From NCBI GenBank assembly GCA_020073445.1, contig JAIQFE010000006.1:62001-126000 (forward strand): a stretch of 64,000 nt of DNA, written 5' to 3'. Positions within the stretch are counted from its first letter, which is position 1; every line of letters begins with the position of its first letter. A model generated the notes under the pieces. It was given only the letters and a program-made list of their open reading frames with translations. It was not told where the DNA came from and did not search any database. The stretch comes from Terriglobia bacterium. GTDB lineage: Bacteria > Acidobacteriota > Terriglobia > Bryobacterales > Bryobacteraceae. The position numbers and the translations under genes were made by a program. Positions 10,769 through 57,269 of this stretch are shown here, one piece after another.

Positions 10769-10796
10769 AGTAGGGCCCGCCCGAGAGCGGGCCCTA
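10769..10796 (+). repeat. GTAG-tagged REP-like palindrome
   Basis: GTAG at 10770-10773 is followed by arm 10774-10780 (GGCCCGC), loop CCGAGA and arm 10787-10793 (GCGGGCC); the pairing extends outward by TAG/CTA. It lies between the OmpA-family stop and the cupin start. It could also act as a terminator for the OmpA-family gene, but no T-run follows on that strand. Confidence 0.6.
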
Positions 10797-10804
10797 TCGA
10801 TTCG

Positions 10805-13579
10805 CTACAGTCCGATCAGCCGCACCGTCAGCGTCTTGGTAGTCGAGTTACCCTTGCTGTCGGTTACCGTGAGATCGAAGATGTAGTTCCCAGGCGTTCC
10901 CGGGAGATACACTTGCGGTGTCGACGAGGTCCTCTGGTAGATCGTCGCCTTGTTCTCGCGCACCGTCCAGTAGAACTGCAGCGGGGTGTTCCCCGACGGA
11001 CTGGACGAGCCGGACGCATCCAACCGTACATCCCGGCTAGACGTGTAGAGTGTGTCGCCTGAGGCGAATACGATCACCGGGCCGCTGTTCCCGACCGTGA
11101 CCGTGACTGTCTTGGTCGTGCTGCCCGCGGCGTTGGTCGCCGTCAGTGTGTAGACGGTCGTGGCCGCCGGCGTAACGCTATTCGTTCCGCTGGCCGAGAC
11201 CGTTCCGATCGAGCTGATGCTCACTGACGTCGAGTTCTGCACGCTCCACTGCAAGGTGGAGCTCTGGCCGGCGTTGATCGTCGACGGAGTCGCGGTGAAG
11301 TTGGCGATTACCGGGAGTGCGCCGACCGTCACGGTAACGCTGCAGGAAGCGCTGGCGCCTCCGCCCGTGGCCGTGATGATGTAGGTGGTGGTCTGCGATG
11401 GAGTCACCGTAACCGAGCCGGTCTTGGTCACCGCTCCGACGCCCGGATCGATGCTGACCGTGTCGGCGTTGACGCTGTTCCAAGACAGAGTCGACGGCTG
11501 GCCCGCGCTGACGTTCGTGGGATTCGCCGAGCAGCCGATAATCTGCACTCCGCCTGGCGCGGCGCCGACGGTAACCGTCACCGACGACGTTTCATCGTTC
11601 ACGCTATTACGCGCCGTCAAGGTATAGGTAGTGGTCTGCGTGGGCGAGACCGAGATCGATCCGTTCACGGCCACGTTCCCGATGCCGGCGATATTGGCCG
11701 TATCGGCATTCTGCGTTTTCCAGGTGAGAGTCACGGCCTGCCCGGCGATGATTTGCGTCTGGCTGGCGACGAAGGACAGAATCGCAGCCCGGTTCGCCGC
11801 ACTGGTGGAGATCCGCACGGCGGCTTGCCCTTGCCCGCCGTGGTCGTCCTTGACCGTCAGGCGGAAGTTGTAGGTTTGCCCGGTGGCTGCCGTAAAGCTC
11901 GGCCGCGAAGTGGCCGGGCCTGTCATGGTCACCTGCGGACCGGCTGTTTGGGTCCACTGGAAGGTGATCGGATCGCCGTCCGGATCGTAAGAAGCCGATC
12001 CATCCAGCTGTACGGTTCCCGCGGCAACGCCGCTCAAGTTCGGACCGGCGTTCGCCACCGGTGGATCGTTGCCCGTGCGAACTCGACGGGTAACCACTTC
12101 GTAGCGGACGCGCGGAACCTCCATGGGAAGCGCGTGCTCGGCTGCCAGGTATTCCTTGGGCCGGATCATGTTCCCGAACTGGACGCCGAAGGCCGCGCGG
12201 CCGTCGTTGCCGGGGGAGAGCATCGTTTCGTTGACGCCGCCCTCGGCTGTGAGCGCGATCTTGCTGTTCAAGGGGAAGATTAAGCGCACGGTTCCGCCGA
12301 TGTGGTCGCCGTATGCGACGCTCTTCAGGTATCCGATATTGCCCTCGGCGTAGTTCTTGCCCCACAGGCCGATGGTGGCGTTGACGCCCGCCTGATCCAC
12401 GATCTTCAAGTAATTTTGCAGGATCACGTTGTTCTGGAAGACGCCGTTGGCGTCCACGCCATGAGCGGTATTGATCAGGGCGTTATCCAGGAACCCTTTG
12501 GTTCCGAAGATACCCACGCGGCCGCGCGAAAAGATGTAGTCTATCGCCAGAGCGCCCTCTCCGAGCGTCCCGCCGGTCTGGTTGCCGGCCAGGGTCACGT
12601 GTTTGAAGCTGGCGAACAGGCCCGCCTGCACGTGTTGCCCCAGTCTGTCGACCAGCCCGAAATCGGCCTGGCCTTCTTTCTGGCCGTGAACGTAATAATA
12701 TTCGCCTTGCGCCTCGAAGCCGAAACGCGTCCCCATGGTGTCGAAGAACCGGCCTCGCCCGGAGAAGGTCACGTTGCCGTTGCCGTCCGCGCCGACATTG
12801 GCGCCCAGCAATTGGAACTTCGGAGTCTTCTCGGCATCCAGCTGCGACTTAACCGCGTTCGCGACTTCGGTGGCCGAAGGCGGCGCTGGCGGCTGCGGAG
12901 CCGGCTGGCCCACTCGCGCTTCCAGGGCTTTCTGGTTCTGCTGTAAACCGTCGACCTCTTTGCGCAGCGCGGCGTTTTGATCGGCCAGATCCTTCAGCAT
13001 CTTGGCGATATCGTCCAGCTTGTCCAGACGCTTCAATACTTCGCTGCAGCAATCGGTCACTCCGGCGGTTTGCGCAGGAGCCGCGTTGGTGATGGCGCGA
13101 ATCGCATCGCCCGGGCCGCCGGCACCTATGGTGCGGCCCTGGTCGTCGGTCACCGTGAGGACCACGCGCCGGTTCATGTAGCGGATCTCATCGGTCGGCT
13201 TTAGCTTGGGATTCGGATCGGGCACCTTGGGAGCCGCCTTGCCGCGAGTGATGGTCTCGATCTGGTTGGTGCGGGCGCCGTATTTCACCAGGAAATCGCG
13301 GACGGTGCTGGCGCGAGCCAGGCCTAGCCGCTGGTTGAAGCTATCGGAGCCGATTCCGTCGGTGTGGCCTTCCACGCGGACGTGGTAGCCGCCGTTGGTC
13401 TGTAGCAATTCGGCCAAGCGCAGGAGGCTGGGAAACCCGTCCACCAGGACCGAGGAGTTGAAGTCGAAGTTGATCTCTTCCCAGTCATCCTTGCTGGCTT
13501 GAGTATCCAACCCCTGAGCCCACAGCCCCGTTCCAACAAGCAAAGCGGCTGATAGCAATCCGATGCATTTCCGTACCAT
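10805..13579 (-). CDS. OmpA-domain outer-membrane protein with PKD and tandem Ig-like repeats
   Basis: A protein of about 924 residues. ATG at 13579 lies 10 nt after AGGAGG; a GTG two codons earlier is only 4 nt from it and is less likely. A signal peptide (MVRKCIGLLSAALLVGTGLWAQ) leads. An OmpA-like peptidoglycan-binding domain follows (about 30-150, with VRVEGHTDGIGSDSFNQRLG), then a short coiled coil (about 180-225) and a region of alternating segments resembling a beta barrel (about 250-480). Next come a PKD-like domain (about 510-600), three tandem Ig-like repeats sharing the TTTYTLTA/TTTYIITA strand, and a final PKD-like domain. OmpA domains are usually C-terminal, so their N-terminal placement here is notable. 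Probably structural or adhesive. Confidence 0.8.
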   Translation of the reverse strand: MVRKCIGLLSAALLVGTGLWAQGLDTQASKDDWEEINFDFNSSVLVDGFPSLLRLAELLQTNGGYHVRVEGHTDGIGSDSFNQRLGLARASTVRDFLVKYGARTNQIETITRGKAAPKVPDPNPKLKPTDEIRYMNRRVVLTVTDDQGRTIGAGGPGDAIRAITNAAPAQTAGVTDCCSEVLKRLDKLDDIAKMLKDLADQNAALRKEVDGLQQNQKALEARVGQPAPQPPAPPSATEVANAVKSQLDAEKTPKFQLLGANVGADGNGNVTFSGRGRFFDTMGTRFGFEAQGEYYYVHGQKEGQADFGLVDRLGQHVQAGLFASFKHVTLAGNQTGGTLGEGALAIDYIFSRGRVGIFGTKGFLDNALINTAHGVDANGVFQNNVILQNYLKIVDQAGVNATIGLWGKNYAEGNIGYLKSVAYGDHIGGTVRLIFPLNSKIALTAEGGVNETMLSPGNDGRAAFGVQFGNMIRPKEYLAAEHALPMEVPRVRYEVVTRRVRTGNDPPVANAGPNLSGVAAGTVQLDGSASYDPDGDPITFQWTQTAGPQVTMTGPATSRPSFTAATGQTYNFRLTVKDDHGGQGQAAVRISTSAANRAAILSFVASQTQIIAGQAVTLTWKTQNADTANIAGIGNVAVNGSISVSPTQTTTYTLTARNSVNDETSSVTVTVGAAPGGVQIIGCSANPTNVSAGQPSTLSWNSVNADTVSIDPGVGAVTKTGSVTVTPSQTTTYIITATGGGASASCSVTVTVGALPVIANFTATPSTINAGQSSTLQWSVQNSTSVSISSIGTVSASGTNSVTPAATTVYTLTATNAAGSTTKTVTVTVGNSGPVIVFASGDTLYTSSRDVRLDASGSSSPSGNTPLQFYWTVRENKATIYQRTSSTPQVYLPGTPGNYIFDLTVTDSKGNSTTKTLTVRLIGL

Positions 13580-13777
13580 CTGCACTGACCCTCCTGTAAT
13601 AAAACAATTCTAGCGTAAGTTGTTTTGGATCAGGAGTTCTGGTCGACCACCCAGGGAAACCGACCCATCCGATACGCCCTCCGACTATGCTCCCGGCGCA
13701 GGACTACTCTCGACTACCCTTCGTTACAGAGAGTCGTCGAGGTCGGTAAGTGTTACAGGGTACCTGGGATGGGACCG

Positions 13778-14572
13778 CTACTTGCCCATGTGCGCGGCGT
13801 CTTTCTCGTTTTCGAGGCAATAGTAGTCCAGCAGCTCGCTATCGAGAATCAGGGGTTGCTTCATCTGGATGGTCCAGGGCGCGGTGTAGTACTTCGGATC
13901 GTCGATGGTGATTTCGATCTGAAGTGTTCCGTAATTCGGGCGCTGGATCCTTTCCGTCATCTTGCCGGTATTGGAGAGGGGGTTCCCGTTGGCGTCGAGC
14001 CACAGGTCGTCGCGGAACCCGGCGGTTTGGACGACCAGCGTGTCACCGTCCCACTTCGCGGTCGAATAACCGTTCCAGGTCGGGTTCGGATCGACAGGAA
14101 GGGGCCGCCCGTCGAGGAAGATCTGGCGATACTGAATGTTGCGTTCGGTCAGGATGACAAAGCGCTCGGGAGTCTGAATGATCCGCTTGTAATAGTCATC
14201 GGTCCAGATTCTGGGAGCTCCCCGAGGCATGCAATGGACGTTAGGATCCTCGACCTGGTTCCGAGTGCGCGCTTTTACAAGGTCGGCCACTCCCGGTTTA
14301 TAGGGCGGACCGCCCTTGAGGTTGGAGGCGATGTTCATAAACTCCCGGCCGATCTGACCGTCGTTGCACTTTCCGAGGCAATTTGCAAAGCTCTCCCAGC
14401 CCCACATGCCGGTGAAATCCGGATGCCCGTCGGCGGTTCGCGGCGTGGGGGCAGTGAGATTGGGCTTGCCGTCGGGCGTCTTCGGTACGTTGGCGGTCGG
14501 GTAATCCAGCCATTGGGCGAACAGGGCCGGGGTGAATGCGGCGAGGATGAATGCGGATGCGAGACGTGGCAT
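13778..14572 (-). CDS. Secreted protein of unknown function
   Basis: A 264-residue protein with a signal peptide (MPRLASAFILAAFTPALFAQ). The mature part opens with a Pro-rich segment (VPKTPDGKPNLTAPTPRTADG) and DFTGMWGWESF, followed by a CLGKC motif. This style of protein is frequent in Acidobacteria, but I cannot give it a function. The four Cys (two in CLGKC, one near the middle, one near the C-terminus) may form disulfides. It is divergent from rnpB. Confidence 0.6.
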   Translation of the reverse strand: MPRLASAFILAAFTPALFAQWLDYPTANVPKTPDGKPNLTAPTPRTADGHPDFTGMWGWESFANCLGKCNDGQIGREFMNIASNLKGGPPYKPGVADLVKARTRNQVEDPNVHCMPRGAPRIWTDDYYKRIIQTPERFVILTERNIQYRQIFLDGRPLPVDPNPTWNGYSTAKWDGDTLVVQTAGFRDDLWLDANGNPLSNTGKMTERIQRPNYGTLQIEITIDDPKYYTAPWTIQMKQPLILDSELLDYYCLENEKDAAHMGK

Positions 14573-14627
14573 TGAAATTTGCGCTCCGTTTTCAACGGTA
14601 TCCCTCTTGCATGCAGGTTGTCAATTC

Positions 14628-14656
14628 TTGGCGAGGAGGCGAACGGGAACTATAAT
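14628..14656 (+). promoter_or_regulatory. Sigma-70 promoter of rnpB
   Basis: A perfect -10 box TATAAT at 14651-14656 is preceded by TTGGCG at 14628-14633 with a 17-bp spacer. The predicted transcription start, about 7 nt downstream, falls at the first base of helix P1 of the RNase P RNA. Confidence 0.85.
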
Positions 14657-14661
14657 GAAGT

Positions 14662-15056
14662 GGGCCTCGCGGTCGGGTAACCGCTCCGATTCATCTTCAC
14701 GATGGGCAGGGGAGGAAAGTCCGGTCTCCATAGGGCAGCATGCCGGCTAACGGCCGGGGGGACTCGCTCAAAGCGGGTTTTACGGAAAGTGCCACAGAAA
14801 ATATACCGCCAGTTCCCGCAAGGGAGCTGGTAAGGGTGAAAAGGTGCGGTAAGAGCGCACCGCGGCTGCGGTAACGCACGCCGGCAGGGCAAACCCCATG
14901 TGGAGCAAGACCAAATAGGGGAGGAGGAGCGGCCCGCTCCGTTACGACTTCCGGGTAGGTCGCTAGAGCTGCGGAGTAATCTGCGGCCCAGAGGAATGGT
15001 TGCCGCCCGTGGCGCAAGCCGCGGGTACAGAAACCGGCTTATAGTCCGCGAGGCCC
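14662..15056 (+). ncRNA. rnpB: RNase P RNA, bacterial type A
   Basis: The catalytic RNA of RNase P, which matures tRNA 5' ends. The universal core is visible: GAGGAAAGTCCGG near 14710, the ACAGAAAATATACCGCC segment near 14791 and the 3' ACAGAAACCGGCTTATAG near 15027. The outermost helix P1 pairs 14662-14672 (GGGCCTCGCGG) with 15046-15056 perfectly over 11 bp, which fixes both ends. Length of about 395 nt is normal. The 3' end converges with the membrane-protein gene, and I see no hairpin terminator after it. Confidence 0.97.
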
Positions 15057-15077
15057 GTTTGTATCGATTTGGATCGT

Positions 15078-16778
15078 TCAGGGGTGGTAGCGGTTTACCG
15101 CGACGGGTGAAATCGGGCCCGTGATCACGTTCGCGGGATTGTAGAGTTCAACCGCGCATTTCGAGTGGCAAGCGAACGCTGGGAAGGATTTTGCCAGGTG
15201 TTCGGGACCAGAGGAATTCCATTCGATGACGATGGTGTTTGCCAGACTGCTTTCGCTCACATTCGTGGGCGAGCCGATCTCTTGCATTTTCCAGCCATCC
15301 CCATCCGCTTGCATGTTGTTACCGGGGCTGGGCGTTCCATCGGAATAATAGTAGACGCCGGCTACTGGAATACCGGGGTAGCACAGCCGGAGCGCCAGAT
15401 CCAGCCACATGTTATGTCCGAAGGGATCTTCGTTCTTGGGTACGCCCGTCAATACAATGACGGTGCCGGGCTTGACACTGGGGGCCAGACGAAGAATCCC
15501 GACAAGAACAGACCGATGACGCTCCCATATTTTACGGTGACGGTCGCCCTTCGAGATTGCTGAAGAAGCGCCAAAATACACAATCACAGCGCCCAGGATC
15601 AGCGCACCGGCGGACAGGGATTTTTTCTTCCCGAGTGCGATCCAGACTAGGCCCAGCGCGGCGGTCCACACCAAGCCGCTGCCAATCCCCGATAGGAACT
15701 GGGTGCGCCACAACCCGCGCGCGCTGCCCAACAACAAATAGACCGGGAAGCTGAGGGCCAAAATAACGCTTCCGATGGCCAGCAAAGCCCACCAGATATG
15801 ATTCGCTTCCGGAAGCGGACCCGGCCGGTTTCCGCGCCGAACCATCCAGAAAACTGCCAGTCCTGCCGCGACGAAAACGAGTGCGGCCCCAATCGACATC
15901 AGAGTCGTAATGCGTTCGGGAGCCGGCTCTCTCTCCCAAGCCCAGAACTCGAGACTGGAGGCAATATTAAACCACCAGTCGCTCATCACAGCTATAGCGC
16001 TCCATCCAGTGCGCAAGACTGACTCCTGATAGGTGCCCCCGCCTGAGCCGAGATACTTGCGTAACGTTATCAGCAGATAGCCCGCGGGCATGACATACCA
16101 GGCGGCCGTCAATGCGCATAGCTTACGCCAATCCGGTTTTAAGAAAAGGAGAACGGCCGGATAAACGAGGATGAGGAGCAACTGACTTTCATAACTCCAC
16201 AACGACATGTATTCGAAAAAACACGCCGCGACTAAACAGCCGAGCGTGGCGCGCAGCGTCGATTTACCGGCCGCTAAGGTCAGTAAATAGAAAGCGAGTA
16301 ACATCCAGAAAATGAAGCCAAACTGATTTAGTTGGCCGACCCACTGTAAAGCGTTGTCTGAGGAGTGCACGATTACGAGTGCGCCAGCTACATAGGGAAC
16401 CAGCGCTCCAAGAGAGATGAACTGCCGCAGCAGCAGAAAAACCAACACGCCGCGTCCCCACCACAAGAGCGCATAGACGATCTGATAAGGAACATAGCTG
16501 CCCCGAATCCCTGAAGCCACGCTGAGCAGGTACGAAAGGTGATAGAAAGTGTTGGTGTGAATCCTGAGCGGATCCGCGCGGTATAGGAAGCCGCTCCACC
16601 AGAAGGCGCCGGTTTCACTCATGTACGGAAACGCCGTTTCGTAGCCGAGGCCGCTCGCCGGGTTGAACGCGCCCCACATAATCAATACCAGGGCCGCGTA
16701 CGCACCGCCGGCTAAGGCCAGAGGCAGAAAGCTTCGTACTTCTGGCGCGTTGACTGCCGACGTTTTTGAACTTGGCAT
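15078..16778 (-). CDS. Polytopic membrane protein, possible GT-C type glycosyltransferase
   Basis: Start placed at ATG 16778 (MPSSKTSAVNAPEVRSF), giving 566 residues; the frame stays open for 24 more codons but that would overlap the divergent gene's start. At least ten hydrophobic helices are visible, the first at about residues 16-36. The first loop is long and aromatic (ETGAFWWSGFLYRADPLR), as in polyprenyl-phosphate-dependent GT-C enzymes, but I cannot identify the family. The neighbouring GT2-methyltransferase fusion makes a role in surface glycan assembly plausible. Confidence 0.6.
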   Translation of the reverse strand: MPSSKTSAVNAPEVRSFLPLALAGGAYAALVLIMWGAFNPASGLGYETAFPYMSETGAFWWSGFLYRADPLRIHTNTFYHLSYLLSVASGIRGSYVPYQIVYALLWWGRGVLVFLLLRQFISLGALVPYVAGALVIVHSSDNALQWVGQLNQFGFIFWMLLAFYLLTLAAGKSTLRATLGCLVAACFFEYMSLWSYESQLLLILVYPAVLLFLKPDWRKLCALTAAWYVMPAGYLLITLRKYLGSGGGTYQESVLRTGWSAIAVMSDWWFNIASSLEFWAWEREPAPERITTLMSIGAALVFVAAGLAVFWMVRRGNRPGPLPEANHIWWALLAIGSVILALSFPVYLLLGSARGLWRTQFLSGIGSGLVWTAALGLVWIALGKKKSLSAGALILGAVIVYFGASSAISKGDRHRKIWERHRSVLVGILRLAPSVKPGTVIVLTGVPKNEDPFGHNMWLDLALRLCYPGIPVAGVYYYSDGTPSPGNNMQADGDGWKMQEIGSPTNVSESSLANTIVIEWNSSGPEHLAKSFPAFACHSKCAVELYNPANVITGPISPVAVNRYHP

Positions 16779-16826
16779 AGACTTCGAAGCAGCACTCCCA
16801 AGCTCCGCATTGTAAGATAATTCAGG

Positions 16827-18395
16827 ATGTCCTTGACGGCGACGCCACAATTAAAGCGTGCCAGAGTCTTAATTTTCATCGTAGCTTACAACGCGGAGCG
16901 GACGATCCAGAGCGTTCTTAAGCGCATTCCTGGGGAGTTATCGCAACACGATACGCACGTCCTGATCATTGACGACTCTTCTTCGGACGCCACGTTCGAA
17001 CGGGCTCGAGAAATCGAGGAGTCGCCGTTTCCGATTACCGTCCTGTTCAATCCGGTGAACCAGGGCTACGGCGGGAATCAGAAGATCGGATTCCATTACG
17101 CGATCCGCGAAAAGTTCGATTACGTCGCGCTGGTTCACGGCGACGGCCAGTATGCTCCCGAACGTCTTCCCGATTTGCTCCAGCCTCTGCTGGCGGGTGA
17201 AGCCGATGCGGTGTTTGGATCCCGCATGCTCGACGCCGGCGGCGCGCGTCGCGGCGGGATGCCGCTCTATAAGTGGATGGGCAACAAGATTCTGACGCGT
17301 ATCCAGAATCGGCTCCTCAAGACAGACTTCTCCGAGTTCCATTCCGGTTACCGGATCTATTCCGTGCGAGCGCTGGCGGGAATTCCCTTCGCCCAGAACA
17401 CCAACGACTTTCACTTCGATACGGAAATCATTATTCAGTTCGTTCGCGCCGGGCTGCGCATCAAGGAGCTGCCCATCCCGACCTACTACGGCGACGAGAT
17501 TTGCCGCGTGAACGGAATGAAGTACGCTTTCGATGTGGTGCGGACTACCGCGCTCTCCAGGGCGCAGGATCTCGGCATCCTGTACGAGCGTAAGTTCGAT
17601 CTTGCGCCACCCGGCCAGCAGTATCTGCCGAAGTGGGGATTCGAAAGTCCGCATGAGCTGGCGGTGCAGCGGGTTCCTTCCGGATCGAAGGTTGCGGATG
17701 TCGGCTGCGCTTCGGGTTATGTTGCCCGCGCTCTGTTCGAAAAGCGCTGCGACGTTACCGGCATCGATCAGTACCGCCCGCCGGAGGATGCGCATATCTC
17801 GAAGTTCGTCCAGGCGGATCTGAATAGCGGCGAGATCCCCGTCGATGCGGGTGCGTTCGACTACGTGCTGTTGCTGGACGTGATCGAGCATCTGCGCTCG
17901 CCCGAGACATTCGTGGAATCGTTACGCAATTCCCGGCGGCAGGACAAAGACACGCGAGTCATCGTCAGCACCGGCAACGTGGCGTTCCTGATCACCCGGT
18001 TTATGCTTTTCCTGGGATTTTTCCACTATGGGGCGCGCGGGATTCTGGATCTGACGCATACGCGGTTGTTCACCTTCGCCACCATTCGAAAGCTCTTTGA
18101 ACAGGCCAATTATCGGATCGAAGAAATACGGGGCATCCCGGCGCCGTTCCCGCTGGCCTTGGGCGACACGGCCCTCGCGCGATTCCTGATCGGAGTGAAC
18201 CGTTTCCTGATCAAGATCTCACGATCGTTGTTTTCCTACCAGATCTTCCTGGTGGCCCGCCCGCTTCCGTCTTTGGAAACGCTGCTCGAAGGAGCGATCG
18301 CTTCGGGCGAGTCTCGTTCCGCAGTCGCTACGAGCGCGGTGCCGGCAGCCACACTTCCAGACACGCCCCGCCCTCGCGCCGATTCGCGGCGGTAA
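16827..18395 (+). CDS. GT2 glycosyltransferase fused to SAM-dependent methyltransferase
   Basis: A 522-residue two-domain protein. Residues about 12-245 are a dolichol-phosphate-mannose-synthase-like GT2 domain, with FIVAYNAERTI, IIDDSSSDAT, the metal/nucleotide region ALVHGDGQYAPE and FHSGYRIYS. Residues about 285-420 are a class I methyltransferase, with motif I VADVGCASGYVARAL and the post-motif LLLDVIEHLRSPE. A hydrophobic stretch near 375-395 may touch the membrane. The product probably glycosylates and methylates a polyprenyl-linked or surface glycan; this is inferred. The last 68 bases overlap the convergent histidine kinase gene. Confidence 0.88.
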   Translation: MSLTATPQLKRARVLIFIVAYNAERTIQSVLKRIPGELSQHDTHVLIIDDSSSDATFERAREIEESPFPITVLFNPVNQGYGGNQKIGFHYAIREKFDYVALVHGDGQYAPERLPDLLQPLLAGEADAVFGSRMLDAGGARRGGMPLYKWMGNKILTRIQNRLLKTDFSEFHSGYRIYSVRALAGIPFAQNTNDFHFDTEIIIQFVRAGLRIKELPIPTYYGDEICRVNGMKYAFDVVRTTALSRAQDLGILYERKFDLAPPGQQYLPKWGFESPHELAVQRVPSGSKVADVGCASGYVARALFEKRCDVTGIDQYRPPEDAHISKFVQADLNSGEIPVDAGAFDYVLLLDVIEHLRSPETFVESLRNSRRQDKDTRVIVSTGNVAFLITRFMLFLGFFHYGARGILDLTHTRLFTFATIRKLFEQANYRIEEIRGIPAPFPLALGDTALARFLIGVNRFLIKISRSLFSYQIFLVARPLPSLETLLEGAIASGESRSAVATSAVPAATLPDTPRPRADSRR

Positions 18396-19515: not shown

Positions 19516-19652
19516 GAATGGTTACTCCGCTTGCGCAAGGTGTCCGGCCGTGGTAGAAACGATAGAAGCCCAATTTCAGTTCAAGTTCTGCAAGTACGGG
19601 GAACCCAGTTGCGTCCGTGCAAGCGGGTTCGGGTTGAGGACCACTATAGAAG

Positions 19653-23323: not shown

Positions 23324-23340
23324 TAACCAGATTGAACCTG

Positions 23341-23418: not shown

Positions 23419-23447
23419 GATTTCCCGAAGCCTGCTAGGAGAGCTGC

Positions 23448-32526: not shown

Positions 32527-33633
32527 TTATTTGACAGGCGACAAACTCGCCTGTCTTACTTCTCGTAGAGCTTCGAACAACAGATCCAGGTCCTCGTCCG
32601 TTCCCGTCGAGATCCGCACGCACTGCGGCAGGCCCCAGGACTCCATCGGACGAATAATCACGCCACGCCGCAATAGCTGATCGGCCAGGGTCGCGGCCGC
32701 CTCGCGGCTCTCCAGAGGCGCCAGAACGAAGTTCGCCTCCGAGGGCACCACCTGCAACCCCAGTTCGCCAAGCGTCTGTGTCAGCCGCCGCAAGCCGCGC
32801 GCGTTCAGCTCCAGAGACCGGTGCCGCCATTCCTTATCGTCCAGCGCCGCGATCGCGCCAGCCTGCGCCGGAGTGCTCGGCTCGAACGGCAGCTTCACCT
32901 TCAGCAGCTCGGCGATCAGGTCCTCATGCGCGAAGCCATAGCCGATCCGCAGCCCCGCCAGCCCATAGACTTTCGAAAACGTCCGCAGCGTGATGACGTT
33001 GTCATAGCGGTAATGCATCGAATCCGGATACCGCGGATTGTCGCGCGCGTAGTCGAAATAAGCCTCGTCCAGCAGGATCAGAACCCGCTGCGGCACGTGA
33101 TGGTAGAACGCATCGAACTCCTGGCGCGTGAAGATCGTCCCGGTCGGATTGTTGGGATTCGCCAGATAGATGATCTTGGTGTTTTCGGTGATGGCGGCGG
33201 CCAGCTTCTTGAGATCGTAATGCCAGTTGTCGTACGGCACGGTTCGATACGCGACGCCGCGAGAATGAGCCAGCACCTGGAAGCCGCCGAAGGCTGCCTC
33301 GGTAGTGAGAATCTCATCTTGGTCGCCGAGAAAGGTTCGGATGATATCCGACACGATGCTGTCCGAGCCGCTGCCGGCGATCACGTTCGCGACTTTGGTC
33401 CCGTATTCCTCCGCCAGTTTCTCGCGCAGGTCCAGGCCGCTATTGGGGTAATGATGCAGGTCGCTCAGATGGGCCCGGATCGCCTCCAGCGCGCGGGGCG
33501 AGGGTCCCAGAGGATTTTCGTTCGATGCCAGCCCGGCGACGCGCTTCAGGCCGTAGGTTCTCGCGACCTCGGCGGCGTTCCGCCCGGGCTTGTAGGGCTT
33601 AAGCGCAGCGATGTAGGGAGGAACGAGTGCCAT
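32527..33633 (-). CDS. hisC: Histidinol-phosphate aminotransferase with a repeat-encoded C-terminus
   Basis: A 368-residue PLP-dependent class I/II aminotransferase of the HisC type, converting imidazole-acetol phosphate to histidinol phosphate. Family segments include ASNENPLGPSP (about 36), NPNNPTGTIF and TLRTFSKVYGLAGLRIGYG, which holds the PLP Lys. Aromatic aminotransferase activity is possible. The last eleven residues (EVRQASLSPVK) are encoded by a palindromic repeat at 32533-32561 and so are probably not ancestral. No other his genes are nearby. Confidence 0.9.
   Translation of the reverse strand: MALVPPYIAALKPYKPGRNAAEVARTYGLKRVAGLASNENPLGPSPRALEAIRAHLSDLHHYPNSGLDLREKLAEEYGTKVANVIAGSGSDSIVSDIIRTFLGDQDEILTTEAAFGGFQVLAHSRGVAYRTVPYDNWHYDLKKLAAAITENTKIIYLANPNNPTGTIFTRQEFDAFYHHVPQRVLILLDEAYFDYARDNPRYPDSMHYRYDNVITLRTFSKVYGLAGLRIGYGFAHEDLIAELLKVKLPFEPSTPAQAGAIAALDDKEWRHRSLELNARGLRRLTQTLGELGLQVVPSEANFVLAPLESREAAATLADQLLRRGVIIRPMESWGLPQCVRISTGTDEDLDLLFEALREVRQASLSPVK
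32533..32561 (-). repeat. REP-like palindrome forming the 3' end of hisC
   Basis: Read on the minus strand, AAGTAA is followed by arm GACAGGCGA, loop GTTTG and arm TCGCCTGTC, a perfect 9-bp stem (32533-32541 and 32547-32555). It lies within the coding frame of hisC. Its position between the converging ctaF and hisC stops could also let it act as a transcript-end hairpin. Confidence 0.75.
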
Positions 33634-40078: not shown

Positions 40079-40087
40079 AAGTTCCCC

Positions 40088-40837: not shown

Positions 40838-40902
40838 AGACAGTCTCCTCAGCGTTTTCAGGTGCCGGGGGTATATCACGTTTGATATGATATTTTCCCA
40901 TC

Positions 40903-44706: not shown

Positions 44707-44712
44707 GCTGTT

Positions 44713-47566: not shown

Positions 47567-47568
47567 GC

Positions 47569-48607: not shown

Positions 48608-48609
48608 GT

Positions 48610-49568: not shown

Positions 49569-49579
49569 GCGAGGGTATA

Positions 49580-49602
49580 GACGGATTTCGAGCCGAAGGG
49601 TT
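49580..49602 (-). promoter_or_regulatory. Candidate ECF promoter for the sigma/anti-sigma operon
   Basis: On the minus strand, AAC (49602-49600) and CGTC (49583-49580) are separated by exactly 16 bases. AAC-N16-CGTC is the classic ECF promoter form known from Bacillus ECF sigma factors. The start site would lie only a few bases before ATG 49568, or about 35 nt before the alternative ATG 49538. This is a pattern match, not proof. Confidence 0.4.
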
Positions 49603-49621
49603 AACTAGAGGGGGAAAACGT

Positions 49622-50623: not shown

Positions 50624-50774
50624 TGGAATGTCTGAGTGTAGCAAAGCGGGCGGTTCGCCCGGCACATCCTCCAGAACCAGGTTGTAGTGGTAAACTACGG
50701 GCGAGTGTCTTTGCCCGAGCGTCCACCGCAGCCAGACAAAGACAGTTCATATTGCTAAAGGAGCAACACCCACG

Positions 50775-51143
50775 ATGAACATCTTTGTCGGGAATCTGAG
50801 TTTCCAAACCACCCAGGATGAGCTGCACGCAGCGTTCGCGCAATACGGGAACGTGGACCGTGTGAATATTGTTACGGATCGCGATACAGGACAGCCCCGC
50901 GGGTTCGCGTTTGTCGAAATGCCCGACCAGCACGAGGCGGAAACCGCGATTCAACAGCTCAACGGGGCCGAGATGAACGGCCGCGCCTTGAACGTGAATG
51001 AAGCGCGTCCCAAGCCGGCGGGCGGCGGATTCGGTGGCGGTGGAGGCCGGGGCGGTCCTCGCGGCGGTGGATTCGGCGGCGGCGGTGGACGTGGCGGAAA
51101 CCGCGGTGGCGGGGGCGGCGGCGGTGGCCGCGGCCGGTACTAA
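50775..51143 (+). CDS. RRM-type RNA-binding protein with Gly/Arg-rich tail
   Basis: A 122-residue protein with one RRM domain (residues 1-80). RNP2 is IFVGNL and RNP1 is RGFAFVEM, both intact. The tail is a Gly-rich run with RGG-like units, resembling cyanobacterial and acidobacterial cold-shock RNA-binding proteins. AAAGGAG at 50757-50763 lies 11 nt before ATG 50775. Its TAA overlaps the convergent tatD stop within the bases CTAA at 51140-51143. Confidence 0.92.
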   Translation: MNIFVGNLSFQTTQDELHAAFAQYGNVDRVNIVTDRDTGQPRGFAFVEMPDQHEAETAIQQLNGAEMNGRALNVNEARPKPAGGGFGGGGGRGGPRGGGFGGGGGRGGNRGGGGGGGGRGRY

Positions 51144-51910
51144 ATCTTACACAATCCTCGAAAATTCTCTGTCGTAATTCGGCCGATCTCCTCCGGCGTG
51201 ACGCCGCGGAGTTCGGCCATCTTGCGCGCTGTTTGGGCGACGAACGCGGGCTCATTGCGCTTTCCGCGGTAGGGCACCGGCGCGAGGTACGGAGCATCGG
51301 TTTCGATCAGAATCCGGTCGGCGGGCGCGGTGCGCGCGGCTTCCTGAATGTCGGCCGACTTGGGGAACGTCACGATCCCGGCGAAACTCAAGTGGAAGCC
51401 GAGGTCCAGGCTCAGCGCGGCTTGATCGGGACCACCCGAAAAGCAGTGCATGATCCCGCCGAGTCCGTAAGGCCTCCAGTAGACTTCGAGCAAGGCGATG
51501 GTGTCTTCCCAGGCCTCGCGAGTGTGGATGACGATGGGCTTGCGCGCCTCTCCCGCGATCAGCATCTGCTGGAGGAACACGTCGCGCTGGACCTCGCGCG
51601 GTGAATGATCGTAGTGATAGTCGAGCCCGATCTCGCCCAGCGCCAGCACCTTGGGGTGCTTCAGTAACTCCCTCAATTGTTTGTAGGTATCCGGCGTGGC
51701 CTTGGCGGCGTCATGCGGATGGATGCCGACGGTGGCGTAAATCGGCTCGTGTTTGTCGGCCAGGCGGATGCCGGCTTCGAGATCCGGCGGACCCTCGCCG
51801 GTGCCGATCACCATCATGCGTTCGACGCCGGCGGCCAGGGCGCGGTCGATGACGGCCTCGCGGTCGGGGTCGAACTGGGGATTGTCTAGGTGACAGTGAC
51901 TGTCAATCAT
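51140..51910 (-). CDS. TatD-family metal-dependent hydrolase
   Basis: A 256-residue amidohydrolase-fold protein of the TatD family (reported as DNases or D-aminoacyl hydrolases). Metal ligands are in MIDSHCHLDN, GEIGLDYHYD, PIVIHTREA, MHCFSG and LIETDAPYL. Length is normal. It follows metG on the same strand with about 27 nt between them, a common pairing. Confidence 0.92.
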   Translation of the reverse strand: MIDSHCHLDNPQFDPDREAVIDRALAAGVERMMVIGTGEGPPDLEAGIRLADKHEPIYATVGIHPHDAAKATPDTYKQLRELLKHPKVLALGEIGLDYHYDHSPREVQRDVFLQQMLIAGEARKPIVIHTREAWEDTIALLEVYWRPYGLGGIMHCFSGGPDQAALSLDLGFHLSFAGIVTFPKSADIQEAARTAPADRILIETDAPYLAPVPYRGKRNEPAFVAQTARKMAELRGVTPEEIGRITTENFRGLCKI

Positions 51911-51917
51911 TCGATTT

Positions 51918-51943
51918 GTCCGGCCTGAAGGCCGGACCTACTT
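51918..51943 (-). repeat. GTAG REP palindrome carrying the metG stop codon
   Basis: On the minus strand AAGTAG precedes arm GTCCGGCC, loop TTCA and arm GGCCGGAC (51918-51925 with 51930-51937). The TAG inside the tag is the metG stop codon (51940-51938). The same element recurs inside metG at 52271-52296. Confidence 0.85.
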
Positions 51944-53869
51944 GAGGCGAGCACCGACGGGGACGTCTTCCAGGAAGCTGGCAAGCACGGGGTTGCCGCC
52001 CTCGAGCGACGCCGCGACGATCATGCCTTGCGATTCCAGGCCGCGTAACTTGCGCGGAGCCAGATTGGCCACAATCACCACCTTACGTCCTACTAGAGCT
52101 TCCGGCTTGTAAGCCAAAGCAATTCCAGCCACAATCGAGCGTGGTTGGGCCTCGCCGATGTCCACGGTCAGGTGAAGCAGTTTATCCGCGCCCTTGACCG
52201 CGGAGGCGGTCTTGACTTCGCCGACCCGGAGGTCGACTTTGATGAAGTCGTCAATGGTGATGTGGGTAGCGTCCGGCCCGGAGGCCGGACCTACTTCGGA
52301 GGTGGGTTTTGCACCCATGAGCGTCTGCTGGCGAGCCAGCTCGGCTGCTTCGCCTTCCTTCATCTTTTCGATCATAGTTTTTACGTCAGCCCTTGGAAAT
52401 ACTCCACTTGCTGGTTCGATCTCTTGTCCGGACGCGAGTTTGCCCCAGTCCAGATCCGCCGTGCGGATGGCATCGAGCGGCGTCCGGAATCCAAGCTGAG
52501 CCCAGATCTTAGCGGCCGATTCGGGGATCACCGGAAAGACCAGCGCGGTCACGATGCGCAAGGCTTCCGCAGCGGTGTAGAGGGTGTCGGCCAGCTTGGC
52601 GGTGTCGCCGGACTTGGCCAGGTTCCAAGGAGCCCGTTCGACGATGAATTTGTCGACGGCGCTGATCAGGCCCCAGATGGTTTCGAGGGCTTTGGAGAAG
52701 TTCAACCATTCGTAGGAATCGAGCGCGCTATCGACAGCAATCTTAGCCACTTGTGAGATCGTGGGATCGCCCGGACCGTCGGGAATCTGGCCGCTGCAGT
52801 TTTGATGGATCAGCGCCAGGGTGCGGCTGGCGAGGTTGCCCAGGCCATTGGCAAGGTCGGAGTTGTAGCGCTGGACCAGCGCATCGTAACTGAAGTTGCC
52901 GTCCTGGCCAAAGACAACTTCACGCAGCAGGTAATACCGGAGCGAGTCGGCGCCCAGAGCCTCTTTAATGGGCGTGGCGCGCACCATGTTGCCCTTGGAC
53001 TTGCTCATTTTGTCGTTCTCGAAGAGCAGCCAGCCGTGGGCGAAAAGACGCTTGGGCAAGGGGAGGTCGGCGGCCCAAAGAAACGCGGGCCAATAGACCG
53101 CGTGGAACCGCAGGATTTCCTTGCCGATCAGGTGGAGGTCGGCGGGCCAGAGGCCTTCTCCATCGACCGCGCTCATGTACGTCGAGAGGGCGTCGAACCA
53201 GACGTAGAATACGTGGGGGGCTTCCTTCGCGACAGGAATGCCCCACTTGATGGTGGTCCGGCTGATGGAGACGTCCTGAAGTCCCTGCTTCACGAAGGCC
53301 AGGACCTCATTGCGGCGCGTTTCCGGGCGGATGAATTCAGGATTGTCTTCGTAGAATTTGAGCAGCCGCTCCTGGAACGCCGAAAGCTTGAAGTAGAAAT
53401 TCTCTTCGGTGACGGTTTCGGTGGGGCGGCCGCAATCCGGGCAGGGATCGCCAGGCTTGGCGTCGGTCACGTATAGTTCGCAGGATACGCAATACTCGCC
53501 GGTGTATTGACTCTTGTAGATGTAGCCGCTCTTGACGCAGCGGTCGAACAGGTCCTGGACAACTTTGGCGTGTTTGGGATCGGTGGTGCGCTGGAAACGG
53601 TCGATTTGCAGGTCCAGCGTTTTCCATTGCTGCCGAAATTCGTTGGAGATGATGTCGGTGAACTTCTGCGGTGATTTGTGGGCCGCCGCGGCAGCGCGCT
53701 CGATTTTCTGGCCGTGCTCGTCGGTGCCGGTCGTCAGGATCACCGGCTCGAAACCCTGCATGCGTTTCAGGCGCTTGATCGCATCGGCGGCGATGGTGGT
53801 GTACGTATGGCCGATGTGCGGAGCGGCGTTGACGTAGTAGATCGGCGTCGTTAAGTAGTATTTGCTCAT
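51938..53869 (-). CDS. metG: Methionyl-tRNA synthetase
   Basis: A 643-residue class I synthetase that charges tRNA-Met. The HIGH motif is PHIGHTYTT near residue 18, the zinc knuckle is CVSCELYVTDAKPGDPCPDC (about 128-147), and the KMSKS loop is NDKMSKSKG. A C-terminal EMAPII-like tRNA-binding domain spans about residues 540-643 (KVDLRVGEVKTAS). The linker before it, near residues 525-534 (TSEVGPASGPDATH), is encoded by a palindromic repeat, and the stop codon comes from a second copy. It follows larC on the same strand. Confidence 0.96.
   Translation of the reverse strand: MSKYYLTTPIYYVNAAPHIGHTYTTIAADAIKRLKRMQGFEPVILTTGTDEHGQKIERAAAAAHKSPQKFTDIISNEFRQQWKTLDLQIDRFQRTTDPKHAKVVQDLFDRCVKSGYIYKSQYTGEYCVSCELYVTDAKPGDPCPDCGRPTETVTEENFYFKLSAFQERLLKFYEDNPEFIRPETRRNEVLAFVKQGLQDVSISRTTIKWGIPVAKEAPHVFYVWFDALSTYMSAVDGEGLWPADLHLIGKEILRFHAVYWPAFLWAADLPLPKRLFAHGWLLFENDKMSKSKGNMVRATPIKEALGADSLRYYLLREVVFGQDGNFSYDALVQRYNSDLANGLGNLASRTLALIHQNCSGQIPDGPGDPTISQVAKIAVDSALDSYEWLNFSKALETIWGLISAVDKFIVERAPWNLAKSGDTAKLADTLYTAAEALRIVTALVFPVIPESAAKIWAQLGFRTPLDAIRTADLDWGKLASGQEIEPASGVFPRADVKTMIEKMKEGEAAELARQQTLMGAKPTSEVGPASGPDATHITIDDFIKVDLRVGEVKTASAVKGADKLLHLTVDIGEAQPRSIVAGIALAYKPEALVGRKVVIVANLAPRKLRGLESQGMIVAASLEGGNPVLASFLEDVPVGARLK
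52271..52296 (-). repeat. GTAG REP palindrome inside metG
   Basis: On the minus strand AAGTAG precedes arm GTCCGGCC, loop TCCG and arm GGCCGGAC (52271-52278 with 52283-52290). Twenty-four of its 26 bases match the copy at 51918-51943; both differences lie in the loop. It is translated in frame as part of the MetG linker. Confidence 0.88.
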
Positions 53870-53886
53870 TTACCTGTATTCACAAC

Positions 53887-53962
53887 GGGGACAGCCAGCC
53901 GATTTCGGGACATGCTACGGACAGGCTTCATACTCGTTTTTCGAAATCGGTGGGCAGTCCCC
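53887..53962. repeat. GGGGACAG long hairpin overlapping the larC 3' end
   Basis: Arms 53887-53907 and 53942-53962 are inverted copies matching at 18 of 21 bases. The left arm is identical over 21 bases to 60931-60951. The right arm, read on the minus strand, codes for the last residues of LarC. Confidence 0.85.
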
Positions 53963-55112
53963 TTCTCAAATATGCTTCATGCGCGGCGGCGAGCACGCGC
54001 GGCAGGGGTGTGCCGGTGCGCTGGGCAATCGCTTTGCAGTCGTCAAATTCCGGCGCGAACGCGCCCTGGGCGGAAACCTTGCCTCGGATGGCCCCGTAGG
54101 GCGTTTCGACTTCCACCATGCTGCGAGCCTCGACGCGGCGCTCAGCGGCGTAGATGCGCAGGCCCAGGGTGGATGTTTCGGCGAAGATAATCTGCGCCAA
54201 GCGTTCCTGATCTTCCGGCTTGGCGATCACGCGGAGCAGCGATCCCGGGCGGTTCTTCTTCATCTGCAAGGGCGATAGCGCGGCATCGAGCGCGCCGGCC
54301 TCCATGAGTTTCTCGAGTGCGTACCCCAGGACCTGGGGGCTCGAATCGTCGATATTGGCTTCGATCACGCTGACCAGGGTCGCTTCCGGTACATCGGTGC
54401 GATCGCCGATCAGAACGCGGAGTACGTTGGCGTGCTGCTTGAAATCGCGATCGCCGGCGCCGTGGCCGATGGAGGAGATGCGCATGGCGGGCAGCGGTCC
54501 GAAGCTCGAAGCCAGCGTTACGGCGAGAGCTGCACCGGTGGGCGTGGTCAGTTCGACCTCCGGGCCGCGTGCGTAAATCGGTTTGCCTGCGAGTAGCGAA
54601 GCGGTTGCAGGTGCGGGAACGGGGAGTAGGCCGTGCTCGGTTTGCACCGTACCGCTGCCGACGTTGATCGCAGAAGCGTGGACTTCGGCAACATCCAAAA
54701 GATCGAGAGCGACGCAGGCTCCGACGATATCGGCGATGGAATCGATCGCTCCGACCTCATGGAAGTGAACCTTTTCGACGGGCACGCCATGGACGCCGGC
54801 TTCGGCCTCGCCCAGCCTGAGGAACACGGCGGAGGCGGCGGCTTGAGCTCGCGGAGTCAGAGGAGCCTTGGCGATCATTTCGAGGATGTGCGAAAGATGA
54901 CGATGCTTGGCCGGCTGATCGCCGACATGTACGCGGAACTTCGATGCGGTGACGCCGCCGCGCACGGTTTTCTCGACCTCGAACCAAGCGCCGGTTTCGA
55001 GGCTATGCAGAGCCGCCAGGAGCGCGTCGGAGGGAGCCCCGGCGTCGAGCAGAGCGCCAACGGTCATGTCTCCACTGATGCCGGAGAAGGCGTCGAGGTA
55101 ACAGAGTTTCAT
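53928..55112 (-). CDS. larC: LarC-type nickel-pincer cofactor protein
   Basis: A 394-residue LarC homologue (DUF111), the CTP-dependent enzyme that inserts nickel into the pincer cofactor of lactate racemase. YLDAFSGISGDMTVGALLDAGA at the N-terminus, the His-rich KHRHLSHI, VEKVHFHEVGAIDSIADI and TPTGAAL are all family segments. Both halves (LarC1 and LarC2) are in one frame. The last 12 residues (RRGLPTDFEKRV) come from a repeat arm. No larA, larB or larE lies in the window, so the client enzyme is elsewhere. Confidence 0.92.
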   Translation of the reverse strand: MKLCYLDAFSGISGDMTVGALLDAGAPSDALLAALHSLETGAWFEVEKTVRGGVTASKFRVHVGDQPAKHRHLSHILEMIAKAPLTPRAQAAASAVFLRLGEAEAGVHGVPVEKVHFHEVGAIDSIADIVGACVALDLLDVAEVHASAINVGSGTVQTEHGLLPVPAPATASLLAGKPIYARGPEVELTTPTGAALAVTLASSFGPLPAMRISSIGHGAGDRDFKQHANVLRVLIGDRTDVPEATLVSVIEANIDDSSPQVLGYALEKLMEAGALDAALSPLQMKKNRPGSLLRVIAKPEDQERLAQIIFAETSTLGLRIYAAERRVEARSMVEVETPYGAIRGKVSAQGAFAPEFDDCKAIAQRTGTPLPRVLAAAHEAYLRRGLPTDFEKRV

Positions 55113-55138
55113 CTATATGGGGTACGAGCCCCGGGGTT

Positions 55139-56494
55139 TTACGCGCCGCCGCCGGCGCGCCCACGGACAACTCTTATGACCGTTCTCGGATTCACGTCCT
55201 TATCGACAACCACACTGAAGAAGGGGAACATCATCTCCTCCCAGGTCATGTCTCCATAGTAAACGGTGCGGTTGGGATCGGGGTTGAATTTGTTGTTGGC
55301 GGAGTTGTCGAAATGCGCGGTGACCGTCAACTTTGTGCCTTTGGGGACCTTGATCGGAGTCGCGACCTCGTAGCCGAGCTGCCAGTTAAAGTCGTAGCGC
55401 GGAACGTTCAGAAGGGTTTCGGTCCGGCCATCGGGATAGAGGAGCTTATAGGTCATGTCCTTGCCGCGGACGTGCATGTGAGGCGACATCCACACCAGTT
55501 CCGCATCCTGGAGGAAGGTGGCCTCGGCGGGAGGACTCTCCCAGTTCCCGTCGTTAGGCGGAATCGCGAAACTCTTGGCGTCGCTGGGCGACGAGAAGCC
55601 GATGGAAACGTAGGTTCGCTGAGGCTGTTCTTTTGCGACTGTGAAGCCGATTTGAGGCCGGTCAGTCGTGTCCTTGCCGTTGGGGGTGTAGTGAACCTGG
55701 AATACGATATCGGTTCCCGCTTTGAACAGCTTCGCCGCCTTGTAAATGCGATAATCCTGGCTGCGCTGGCCGGGAACATAGCATCCTTCAATGCCGTTGC
55801 TTCCGGCGGTGATGGATGGCGGAATGCCTTTTCCGTTGATGCCGGCCGCTTCAGGCAGGGCGTTGCCCTGGTCGTCGCGCGGCCGGTCGGCCCATACGGG
55901 CGTGTTGTATTTGACGTCGTCGGTGTGAGGCTTGAAATAGACGCAGATGTGATGCGTCACCGAAGGTTCGCTGGGCCGGATTTCCATGGAGGTGATCCAG
56001 GTATCCTTGGTGATCCCGCTGGGGACCGTGATGAAGCTCCACTCGATGACGTTGTTCTTGGGTTTTGCGGGAACGAGGGTCTCGGGTCCCTTGACGACGA
56101 GATCGGGCTGGATATCCCAGCCATCCGCGGGCCACTTCACTTGTGGCGGGGCGTCTTTGGCATTGCCTTCGGGAGCACCGGCGTCAGCCCACTTGGCGAT
56201 GGTTTCGATTTCGTTGGATTTCAGCGCACGATCGTTGGAGAAGTGGCCGAATTGCGGGTCGGCAAACCAGGGCGGCATCTTCTTTGTGGCGACCGCGGTC
56301 TTCATGGCCTTGGCCCACGGGCGCGTGCTTTCGTAAGTCAGAAACGACATCGGCGCGATCTGGCCGGGGCGATGACAGCTCTGACAGTTCTTTTGCAGAA
56401 TCGGCAGAACGTCTTTGTGAAACGTTACCGGTGAATCGGCCGCGGCGGCGGTGGCTAGAACGCTTAAGAAAAGGATCCCCGTGCGTTTGTCCAT
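55139..56494 (-). CDS. Cytochrome c fused to PHM-like copper domains
   Basis: A 451-residue exported protein. A signal peptide (GILFLSVLATAAAA) leads a cytochrome c-like domain with one CQSCH haem site (about residue 38) and a probable distal Met in KKMPPWF. The rest resembles copper type II ascorbate-dependent monooxygenases (PHM/DBH fold): THHICVYF gives a His pair, FQVHYTPNG a third His, and MSPHMHVRGKDM the second-site His-x-His. This fusion is known in Acidobacteria and Planctomycetes. The substrate is unknown. Confidence 0.8.
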   Translation of the reverse strand: MDKRTGILFLSVLATAAAADSPVTFHKDVLPILQKNCQSCHRPGQIAPMSFLTYESTRPWAKAMKTAVATKKMPPWFADPQFGHFSNDRALKSNEIETIAKWADAGAPEGNAKDAPPQVKWPADGWDIQPDLVVKGPETLVPAKPKNNVIEWSFITVPSGITKDTWITSMEIRPSEPSVTHHICVYFKPHTDDVKYNTPVWADRPRDDQGNALPEAAGINGKGIPPSITAGSNGIEGCYVPGQRSQDYRIYKAAKLFKAGTDIVFQVHYTPNGKDTTDRPQIGFTVAKEQPQRTYVSIGFSSPSDAKSFAIPPNDGNWESPPAEATFLQDAELVWMSPHMHVRGKDMTYKLLYPDGRTETLLNVPRYDFNWQLGYEVATPIKVPKGTKLTVTAHFDNSANNKFNPDPNRTVYYGDMTWEEMMFPFFSVVVDKDVNPRTVIRVVRGRAGGGA

Positions 56495-56531
56495 GTGTCC
56501 AGGATATCGTGTCAGGAAACGGCGGAGCGAA

Positions 56532-57269
56532 TCAGAGGAGCTGCGGCAAAGCCTCGGCGGCAGCCGCCCGCCAGGAGAAATCGACCATCCCAGAGACGGG
56601 CGTTTCCGCGGGGTTGACCTCGACTACTTTCGCGCCGGAAGCCTTGGCGAGATGCACGAGCCCGGCTGCGGGGTAGACCAAGGCGGAGGTTCCGACCACC
56701 AGGAAGACGCCGGCTGCCTCGGCCGCTTGCTCGGCTTGAGCCCAGATTTCGGGCGGAAGATTCTCGCCGAACCAAACTACGCCAGGACGCTCGATTGCGC
56801 CGCAATTGCACTTGGGAGGAAGCTCCGGTAGGGACGGGCGAGGGTCGTGGCGTTCGTGGCTGCAGAGGGTACAGCGGAGCGTCCAGATATCGCCGTGAAC
56901 TTTCAGAACGTGGGTTGAGCCTGCGCGGTCGTGGAGTCCGTCGACATTTTGGGTGATGAGAGTGAAGTTGGGCTTGCGTCTTTCGAGTTCGGCGAGAGCG
57001 AGGTGGCCGGCGTTCGGTTCAGCTTTCGCGATCAGGCTACGGCGCCAGTCGTACCACTCCCAGACGAATTTGGGATCGCGCGCGAAGGCTTGTGGTGTGG
57101 CTAAATCTTCCGGGCGAAATTGATTCCAGAGAGGCGGCCGGTCTGGAGACCGGCCCCACTGGTCACGGAAGGTCGGGATGCCGCTTTCGGCGGAGATTCC
57201 GGCACCGGTGAGGACAGCAATAGATTTGGCGCTGCTCAACCATTCCCGCGCGCGTTCCGCGGCGGTCAC
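56532..57269 (-). CDS. cobB: Sir2-family NAD-dependent deacylase with a repeat-encoded insertion
   Basis: A 245-residue sirtuin. [16 protein letters not shown] begins the NAD site, [13 protein letters not shown] holds the catalytic His, and CTLCSHE with CNCG form the zinc knuckle. Between FRD and [13 protein letters not shown] lies an extra [10 protein letters not shown] (about residues 37-46), where other sirtuins have only a few residues. This piece is encoded by a palindromic repeat (57136-57161). The stop of this gene's upstream neighbour purE overlaps its start by four bases. Confidence 0.9.
57136..57161 (-). repeat. GTGG REP palindrome inside cobB
   Basis: On the minus strand CAGTGG precedes arm GGCCGGTC, loop TCCA and arm GACCGGCC (57136-57143 with 57148-57155). 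Relative to the metG copies both arms differ in a paired way, so the hairpin is conserved. It is translated in frame as WGRSPDRP. Confidence 0.85.

What the first reader, a model, noticed from the sequence alone, without database searches (positions are those of the whole stretch)
10769..57161. A GTRG-tagged palindrome family with covarying stems, but no RAYT gene nearby
Four elements (10769-10796, 51918-51943, 52271-52296, 57136-57161) share AGTRGG followed by an 8-bp or similar stem, and 32533-32561 has a close variant (AGTAAG). Stem bases change in pairs (GTCCGGCC/GGCCGGAC against GGCCGGTC/GACCGGCC). GTRG plus palindrome is the established format of REP elements moved by REP-associated tyrosine transposases. 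Three of the five are wholly coding, and a fourth provides a stop. This suggests an unusually coding-tolerant REP system, possibly an exon-tail generator.
Basis: partly seen in the sequence, partly recalled or inferred. Interest (0 to 1): 0.75.

Follow-up and report, generated by a model that had tools for sequence, protein, structure and literature searches.

The report
Intragenic REP elements with distant transposases
A soil Acidobacteriota genome carries small palindromic mobile repeats of a well-known kind (REP elements with RAYT-type transposases), some of which have landed inside or at the very end of protein genes without breaking them; this is a new example of a phenomenon already in print.

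Summary
Four of the five reported elements are REP elements: three (51918, 52271, 57136) of one family (A), while 32533 belongs to a second family (B). The fifth (10769) is a single-copy, terminator-like hairpin.

Family A has 27 pattern matches genome-wide against 0 for the reversed pattern and covarying stems. "No RAYT nearby" holds only for the window: Y1/RAYT-type genes on contigs C20 and C6 are flanked by family A and family B elements. Both copies look broken at the catalytic-tyrosine end.

Of 25 family A copies, 4 lie inside genes and 10 touch an upstream gene's stop codon (my labels, counted). Sister species give empty sites for several. The best case lengthens a sirtuin loop from 5 to 12 residues, in a gene still under purifying selection.

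Intragenic GTAG REPs, and REPs supplying TAG stops, were published in 2013 (PMC3733652). A good new example, not a new kind.

The parts
51918..51941 (-). Family A REP, GTAGGTCCGGCCTTCAGGCCGGAC, between metG and a TatD-type gene; its GTAG supplies the metG stop (AAG TAG)
   Evidence: sister G014 has AAGTGACC at the same junction
52271..52294 (-). Family A REP, GTAGGTCCGGCCTCCGGGCCGGAC, in frame in the metG interdomain linker (reads VGPASGPD)
   Evidence: linker is net 3 nt longer than in G014, so a clean empty site is not shown
57136..57159 (-). Family A REP, GTGGGGCCGGTCTCCAGACCGGCC, in frame in a SIR2 (sirtuin) gene, inside the FRxxGLW loop
32533..32559 (-). Family B REP, GTAAGACAGGCGAGTTTGTCGCCTGTC, forming the C-terminus (VRQASLSPVK) of an aminotransferase
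   Evidence: the same element is present in sister G033
10767..10796 (+). Terminator-like hairpin, excluded from the family: tag bases are part of the stem and it is single-copy in the genome
51938..53869 (-). metG, methionyl-tRNA synthetase with C-terminal tRNA-binding domain; host of two family A elements
51140..51910 (-). TatD-type gene (name recalled, not searched); its start overlaps the metG stop in G014 and is parted from it here by the 51918 element
56532..57269 (-). SIR2 family gene (PF02146), host of the 57136 element
32527..33633 (-). Class I/II aminotransferase (PF00155), host of the 32533 element

Best explanation
The four elements are members of two GTRG-tagged REP families (A and B) scattered through the genome of a Bryobacterales-type Acidobacteriota. 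Each family is, or until recently was, copied by its own RAYT-type single-strand transposase, encoded elsewhere in the genome and flanked by the same elements. Copies arise as hairpins on single-stranded DNA and survive where they do least harm: between genes, exactly at stop codons (where GTAG can supply a new TAG) and, now and then, in frame inside loops, linkers or termini of proteins, because most reading frames of the element hold no stop. Shown here: dispersed families, stem covariation, flanked RAYT-type genes, empty sites, in-frame retention. Inferred: that these RAYTs did the copying, and that survival rather than target choice explains the stop-codon positions.
For: 27 pattern matches against 0 reversed; covariation; RAYT-type gene on C20 between family A copies and on C6 between family B copies; intact related RAYTs in sister genomes beside similar REPs (L252, L246), L252 passing the NCBIfam REP_Tyr_transpos cut-off (83.4 against 80) and L246 not (71.7), L252 matching TnpArep 4er8. 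Of the 12 loci compared: clean empty sites for 6 (L015, L018, L019, L027, L032, L041), element or variant shared with a sister for 3 (L021, L028, L034), ambiguous 2 (L014, L026), not an insertion 1 (L029). In the window: empty junction in G014 for 51918, empty loop in G014 and G034 for 57136. Frames: of six frames of 25 family A copies, three never hold a stop, two hold one in 4 and 8 copies, and one, which reads the TAG, in 21. SIR2 dN/dS 0.138 (window-G014) against 0.128 (G014-G034).
Against: Family A is small (about 25-35 copies; 35 rows at up to 2 mismatches) beside the 37-427 perfect copies printed for Stenotrophomonas (PMC2817692). Both own-genome RAYT copies look broken, so current mobility is doubtful. 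The two family A copies beside the C20 RAYT are listed on the same strand, though the right one also reads as GTGGC on the other strand. One apparent intragenic copy (PriA, L029) is no insertion, so pattern matches inside genes can be chance. L014 lies where every sister has a different hairpin and may be a terminator. No movement was observed.
Confidence: 0.9

Rival explanations
1. The palindromes at gene ends are ordinary intrinsic terminators or mRNA-stabilising hairpins that happen to follow a TAG stop, and the tag is chance.
For: True of 10769 and possible for L014 (lolA-recA gap), where each sister has its own hairpin. 10 of 13 family A copies with an upstream same-strand gene touch its stop codon.
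Against: Specific sequence shared by distant copies, 27 against 0 reversed; flanks of RAYT-type genes; copies inside genes; hairpin-free empty sites in sisters at several gene ends.
Confidence: 0.05
2. The insertions choose stop codons: the RAYT targets sequences such as GT|GA or GTAG, which places new copies on the ends of genes.
For: Empty sites read AAGT|GA (metG, G014), TGGT|GA (L027, G033), AAGTAG (L019 and L021, G034). In Marinomonas the GTAG motif directs cleavage-site choice (PMC8266576 passages).
Against: Several of these junctions have almost no gap in the sisters, so only an insertion at the stop could survive. In-frame copies far from stops exist. Sister stops vary among TGA, TAA and TAG. 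The sample is small and no expected value was computed.
Confidence: 0.1
3. The in-frame copies are adaptive protein changes rather than tolerated accidents.
For: SIR2 gene remains constrained. The L028 loop holds family A in two species and a family B-like copy a few codons away in two others. L034 site keeps a covarying element in G014 and G033.
Against: Sites are loops, linkers and termini, where neutrality is expected. The predicted structure gives the inserted sirtuin residues 37-42 pLDDT under 50. No functional data.
Confidence: 0.07

Closest known systems
GTAG-tagged REPs with intragenic copies (Di Nocera and co-workers 2013, PMC3733652; abstract, passages and section 15 seen)
   Same: GTAG tag, GC-rich palindrome, transposase genes flanked by REPs, copies inside ORFs (tRNA synthetases and repair genes among them), TAG of the tag used as stop codon of flanking ORFs.
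   Different: Different phylum member and stem sequences; fewer copies; the passages seen name Opitutus terrae as the GTAG maximum and Koribacter (Acidobacteriota) only for TIR-flanked genes.
RAYT/REP of Stenotrophomonas, Pseudomonas and E. coli (PMC2817692, PMC3116915; passages seen)
   Same: GT(A/G)G head, perfect GC-rich stem with a 2-4 nt loop, cognate flanked Y1 gene.
   Different: There REPs are mainly extragenic: in P. fluorescens SBW25, 14 of 1,067 copies of the commonest 16-mers overlap genes (not the same measure as mine). Copy numbers are larger.
Rickettsia palindromic elements (RPE), as described in the PMC3733652 passages
   Same: Short palindromes inserted in frame in proteins that probably work.
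   Different: RPE-4 and RPE-6 carry the CGTC tag according to that paper, and it says CGTC REPs lack a dedicated transposase; here GTRG tag and RAYT-type genes.
TnpAREP group 3, Marinomonas (PMC8266576; passages seen)
   Same: Perfect palindrome with GTAG; cleavage at CT or CA chosen through GTAG. Family A has a weakly conserved GCYAC just 3' of the stem, which would offer such a site (inference).
   Different: No cleavage tested here; no sequence comparison with that protein was made.

Membership tests
REP element (GTAG superfamily) | GTRG tag 5' of a GC-rich palindrome | tested here: met
   Family A consensus GTAGGnCCGGCCTCCAGGCCGGnC, 25 copies aligned. Family B carries GTGG, GTAG or GTAA.
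REP element (GTAG superfamily) | Many dispersed copies in the genome | tested here: met
   Family A 27 pattern matches, reversed control 0, though few by REP standards. Family B 16 places at up to 2 mismatches. 10769: not met, one copy.
REP element (GTAG superfamily) | Stem kept by paired changes | tested here: met
   98.3% of cells paired, 13 cells changed on both sides against 3.2 +/- 1.4 shuffled; two of the five measures do not exceed the shuffles.
REP element (GTAG superfamily) | Mainly extragenic | tested here: met
   4 of 25 family A copies inside genes, 10 touching a stop codon, the rest between genes, beside the RAYT or unclear. Labels were set by me.
REPtron (RAYT flanked by its REPs) | Y1/HUH transposase gene of the RAYT type | tested here: met
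   PF01797 over its cut-off for the C20 (30.5 bits) and C6 (26.8 bits) genes, cut-off 23; HVH motif in both. The NCBIfam RAYT model was run on sister proteins only.
REPtron (RAYT flanked by its REPs) | Two flanking cognate REPs in inverted orientation | tested here: inconclusive
   Family B gene on C6: inverted, left copy with one stem mismatch. Family A gene on C20: flanked on both sides but same-strand by the pattern, the right copy being readable either way.
REPtron (RAYT flanked by its REPs) | Intact catalytic tyrosine motif | tested here: not met
   C20 copy: YIEANPVRAG lies in another frame than the HVH part. C6 copy: the match ends before it. Related RAYTs with the motif exist in sister genomes.
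REPtron (RAYT flanked by its REPs) | Cleavage of the cognate hairpin by the transposase | not testable with these tools
   Needs protein and single-stranded DNA.

The most novel reading that the evidence does not exclude
Fixed loops of working proteins in this genus are repeated landing places for REP hairpins of unrelated families, so that RAYT activity is a lasting source of new in-frame peptides: an added loop in a sirtuin's cofactor site, and the same membrane-protein loop filled by family A in two species and by a family B-like copy in two others. Some of these insertions would alter function rather than being merely tolerated.
Probability: 0.15. Interest if true: 0.55.

Novelty: new member of a known kind. 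Interest (0 to 1): 0.33.

Why it matters
How REPs spread and where they insert is described as poorly understood (PMC8266576 abstract as listed). Copies inside or at the end of conserved genes, with close relatives lacking them, give before-and-after insertion sites at base resolution. They also show that a mobile hairpin can add residues to a conserved enzyme loop without the gene decaying. The phenomenon itself is already published, so the gain is a well-documented set of examples in a little-studied phylum.

Tried and rejected
10769 as a family member: rejected, single copy and tag inside the stem. PriA copy (L029): rejected as an insertion, no length change in three sisters. L009: dropped before the counts, because its stem is incomplete although the pattern matched inside a 418-aa ORF. 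L022: dropped, the same element as L021 read the other way. L044 and L049: dropped because my script picked up the neighbouring copy (L036, L040), so family B counts cover 14 elements while one search has 16 places. L035: left as unclear, two competing ORFs.

A stop-codon target preference was considered and kept only as a rival. For metG's linker a clean empty site could not be shown: my regular expression parsed 2 of 29 relatives, and the three further linkers printed vary in length and sequence. Folding the sirtuin alone gave a poor model (mean pLDDT 39.0); the model with 34 aligned sequences (91.3) is the one used. Covariance-model and fold searches were not run.

Coding calls rest on a codon score trained on 23 long ORFs of the window, some of which score low and may not be genes; no gene finder was available.
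Full report
What is there. The window is part of a 6.58-Mb genome in 102 contigs. Three elements (51918, 52271, 57136) match one family (A), and 32533 matches another (B). The element at 10769 is single-copy even at 3 mismatches, and its TAGG bases belong to the stem, so it is better read as a terminator-like hairpin.

More than chance. Family A's pattern has 27 matches in the genome and none for the reversed pattern. Allowing 3 mismatches gives 49 against 8, some being two readings of one palindrome. In the genus, 5 of 23 genomes have the pattern: 27, 13, 4, 2 and 1 matches; the reversed control gives 4 matches in three genomes that lack the family. Stems covary: column pair 6/23 is GC 10, UA 6, AU 4, and 11/18 is CG 15, UA 3 among 20 distinct copies.

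The transposase. Of 8 Y1_Tnp matches in the genome, none is on the window's contig. One on contig C20 (L006) lies between two family A copies, and one on C6 (L007) between two family B copies, the left with one stem mismatch. Two more (L004, L008) have their own inverted GTG-tagged palindromes. The C20 gene shares 54% identity over 142 residues with L252 of sister genome G031, which is surrounded by GTAG-CTCCGGTC palindromes, passes the NCBIfam REP-associated tyrosine transposase cut-off and matches the solved TnpArep 4er8 at 3.7e-7. L246 of G016 has an inverted family A-like pair but falls below that cut-off, 71.7 against 80. In the C20 gene the YIEANPVRAG motif is in another frame than the HVH part, and in the C6 gene the match ends before it. 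Both therefore look inactive, unless the assembly errs.

Where the copies lie. From 27 matches I dropped one double reading (L022) and one with an incomplete stem (L009), leaving 25. Four are inside genes with the reading frame kept: metG, SIR2, L028 (a membrane protein without a Pfam match; spermidine-synthase-like by recall) and L034 (PDDEXK nuclease family). Ten touch the stop codon of an upstream same-strand gene: in five the tag supplies the TAG, in two the stop straddles the tag's first base, in three it abuts it (counted). alone finds 9 of 12; L018 failed its coding threshold and is added, giving 10 of 13. The remaining 11 are six between genes, two beside the RAYT, one at a 5' side, one no insertion (L029) and one unclear (L035).

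Before and after. I compared 16 of the 39 distinct elements handled in the scripts with sister species: 12 and 4. Clean empty sites: L015, L018, L019, L027, L032 and L041, 51918 in G014 and 57136 in G014 and G034. Shared with a sister or present there as a variant: L021, L028, L034 and 32533, whose G033 ortholog has the same element while G034 lacks it. Ambiguous: L014, L026 and 52271. Not an insertion: L029. At metG the sister's stop and the next gene's start appear to overlap (AAGTGACC); here the element parts them and supplies the TAG.

The sirtuin. In 76 of 77 parsed sequences the loop between the conserved FR and W has 5 residues; the 77th is the window's own, with 12. Of 95 loci, 18 were not parsed, and some loci are the same record fetched twice. 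dN/dS is 0.138 between window and G014, 0.101 between window and G034, and 0.128 between the two sisters, so the gene has not decayed. The model built from 34 sequences is confident (mean pLDDT 91.3, pTM 0.88), with only residues 37-42, all REP-encoded, in a run under 50.

Repeated use of one loop. At the L028 loop, G014 carries the same family A copy plus 15 further in-frame bases. G033 and G034 read VGQAISPPV and VGRGILSPV a few codons upstream; by my reading of the DNA these are family B-like copies, that of G034 with one arm decayed. At the L034 site G014 and G033 have GTGGGGCGGGTCTCCAGACCCGC, a covarying version.

How it probably works. RAYT-type enzymes act on single-stranded hairpins and in one case choose CT or CA cleavage sites through the GTAG tag (PMC8266576 passages). 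Family A has a purine before the tag and a weakly conserved GCYAC after the stem, which could offer such a site; that is inference. Three of the six frames of 25 family A copies never hold a stop, two hold one in 4 and 8 copies, and one, reading the TAG, in 21. A random insertion in frame is thus often readable, and one frame gives an immediate stop. Selection would then leave copies in gaps, at stops and in loops.

Known or new. A 2013 survey (PMC3733652; abstract, passages and section 15 seen) already reports GTAG REPs inside ORFs, among them tRNA synthetases and repair genes, and states that GTAG termini often provide the TAG stop codon to flanking ORFs. It also mentions TIR-flanked Y1 genes in Koribacter, and PMC6006769 (passages) describes about 600 copies of Y1-associated structures in Solibacter, so such repeats in Acidobacteriota are in print too. 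My searches did not list a paper on this genus; that is not proof of absence. The finding is a new member of a known kind.

Noticed in passing
53886-53962 and 60931-61110: A second repeat family of about 76 nt (GGGGACAGCCAGCCGATTTCGG, about 32 variable bases, then CGAAATCGG and a near-complement), 21 core matches genome-wide against 0 for the reversed pattern; the second copy is followed by two further 52-nt half units in tandem.
   Followed up: partly
53928-55112 (minus strand): An ORF whose last residues (about RGLPTDFEKRV) and stop are written by the 53886-53962 repeat, much as the aminotransferase tail is written by a REP.
   Followed up: partly
L006 1326-1380 and L278 (G014): Half REPs of 15 nt in tandem (GTAGGTCCGGCCGTG twice beside the family A transposase; GTAGGTCCGGCGTCA in frame in the L028 ortholog), suggesting slippage or partial copying.
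   Followed up: no
L032/L033 (G000:C91:558276-558332): Two family A copies facing each other between convergent genes, arranged like a REPIN; absent from three sister species at the aligned place.
   Followed up: partly
L004 and L008 flanks: Two other Y1 genes flanked by inverted palindromes GTGGCACAGGCT... and GTGGGGTCAGGCTT..., probably further REP families.
   Followed up: no
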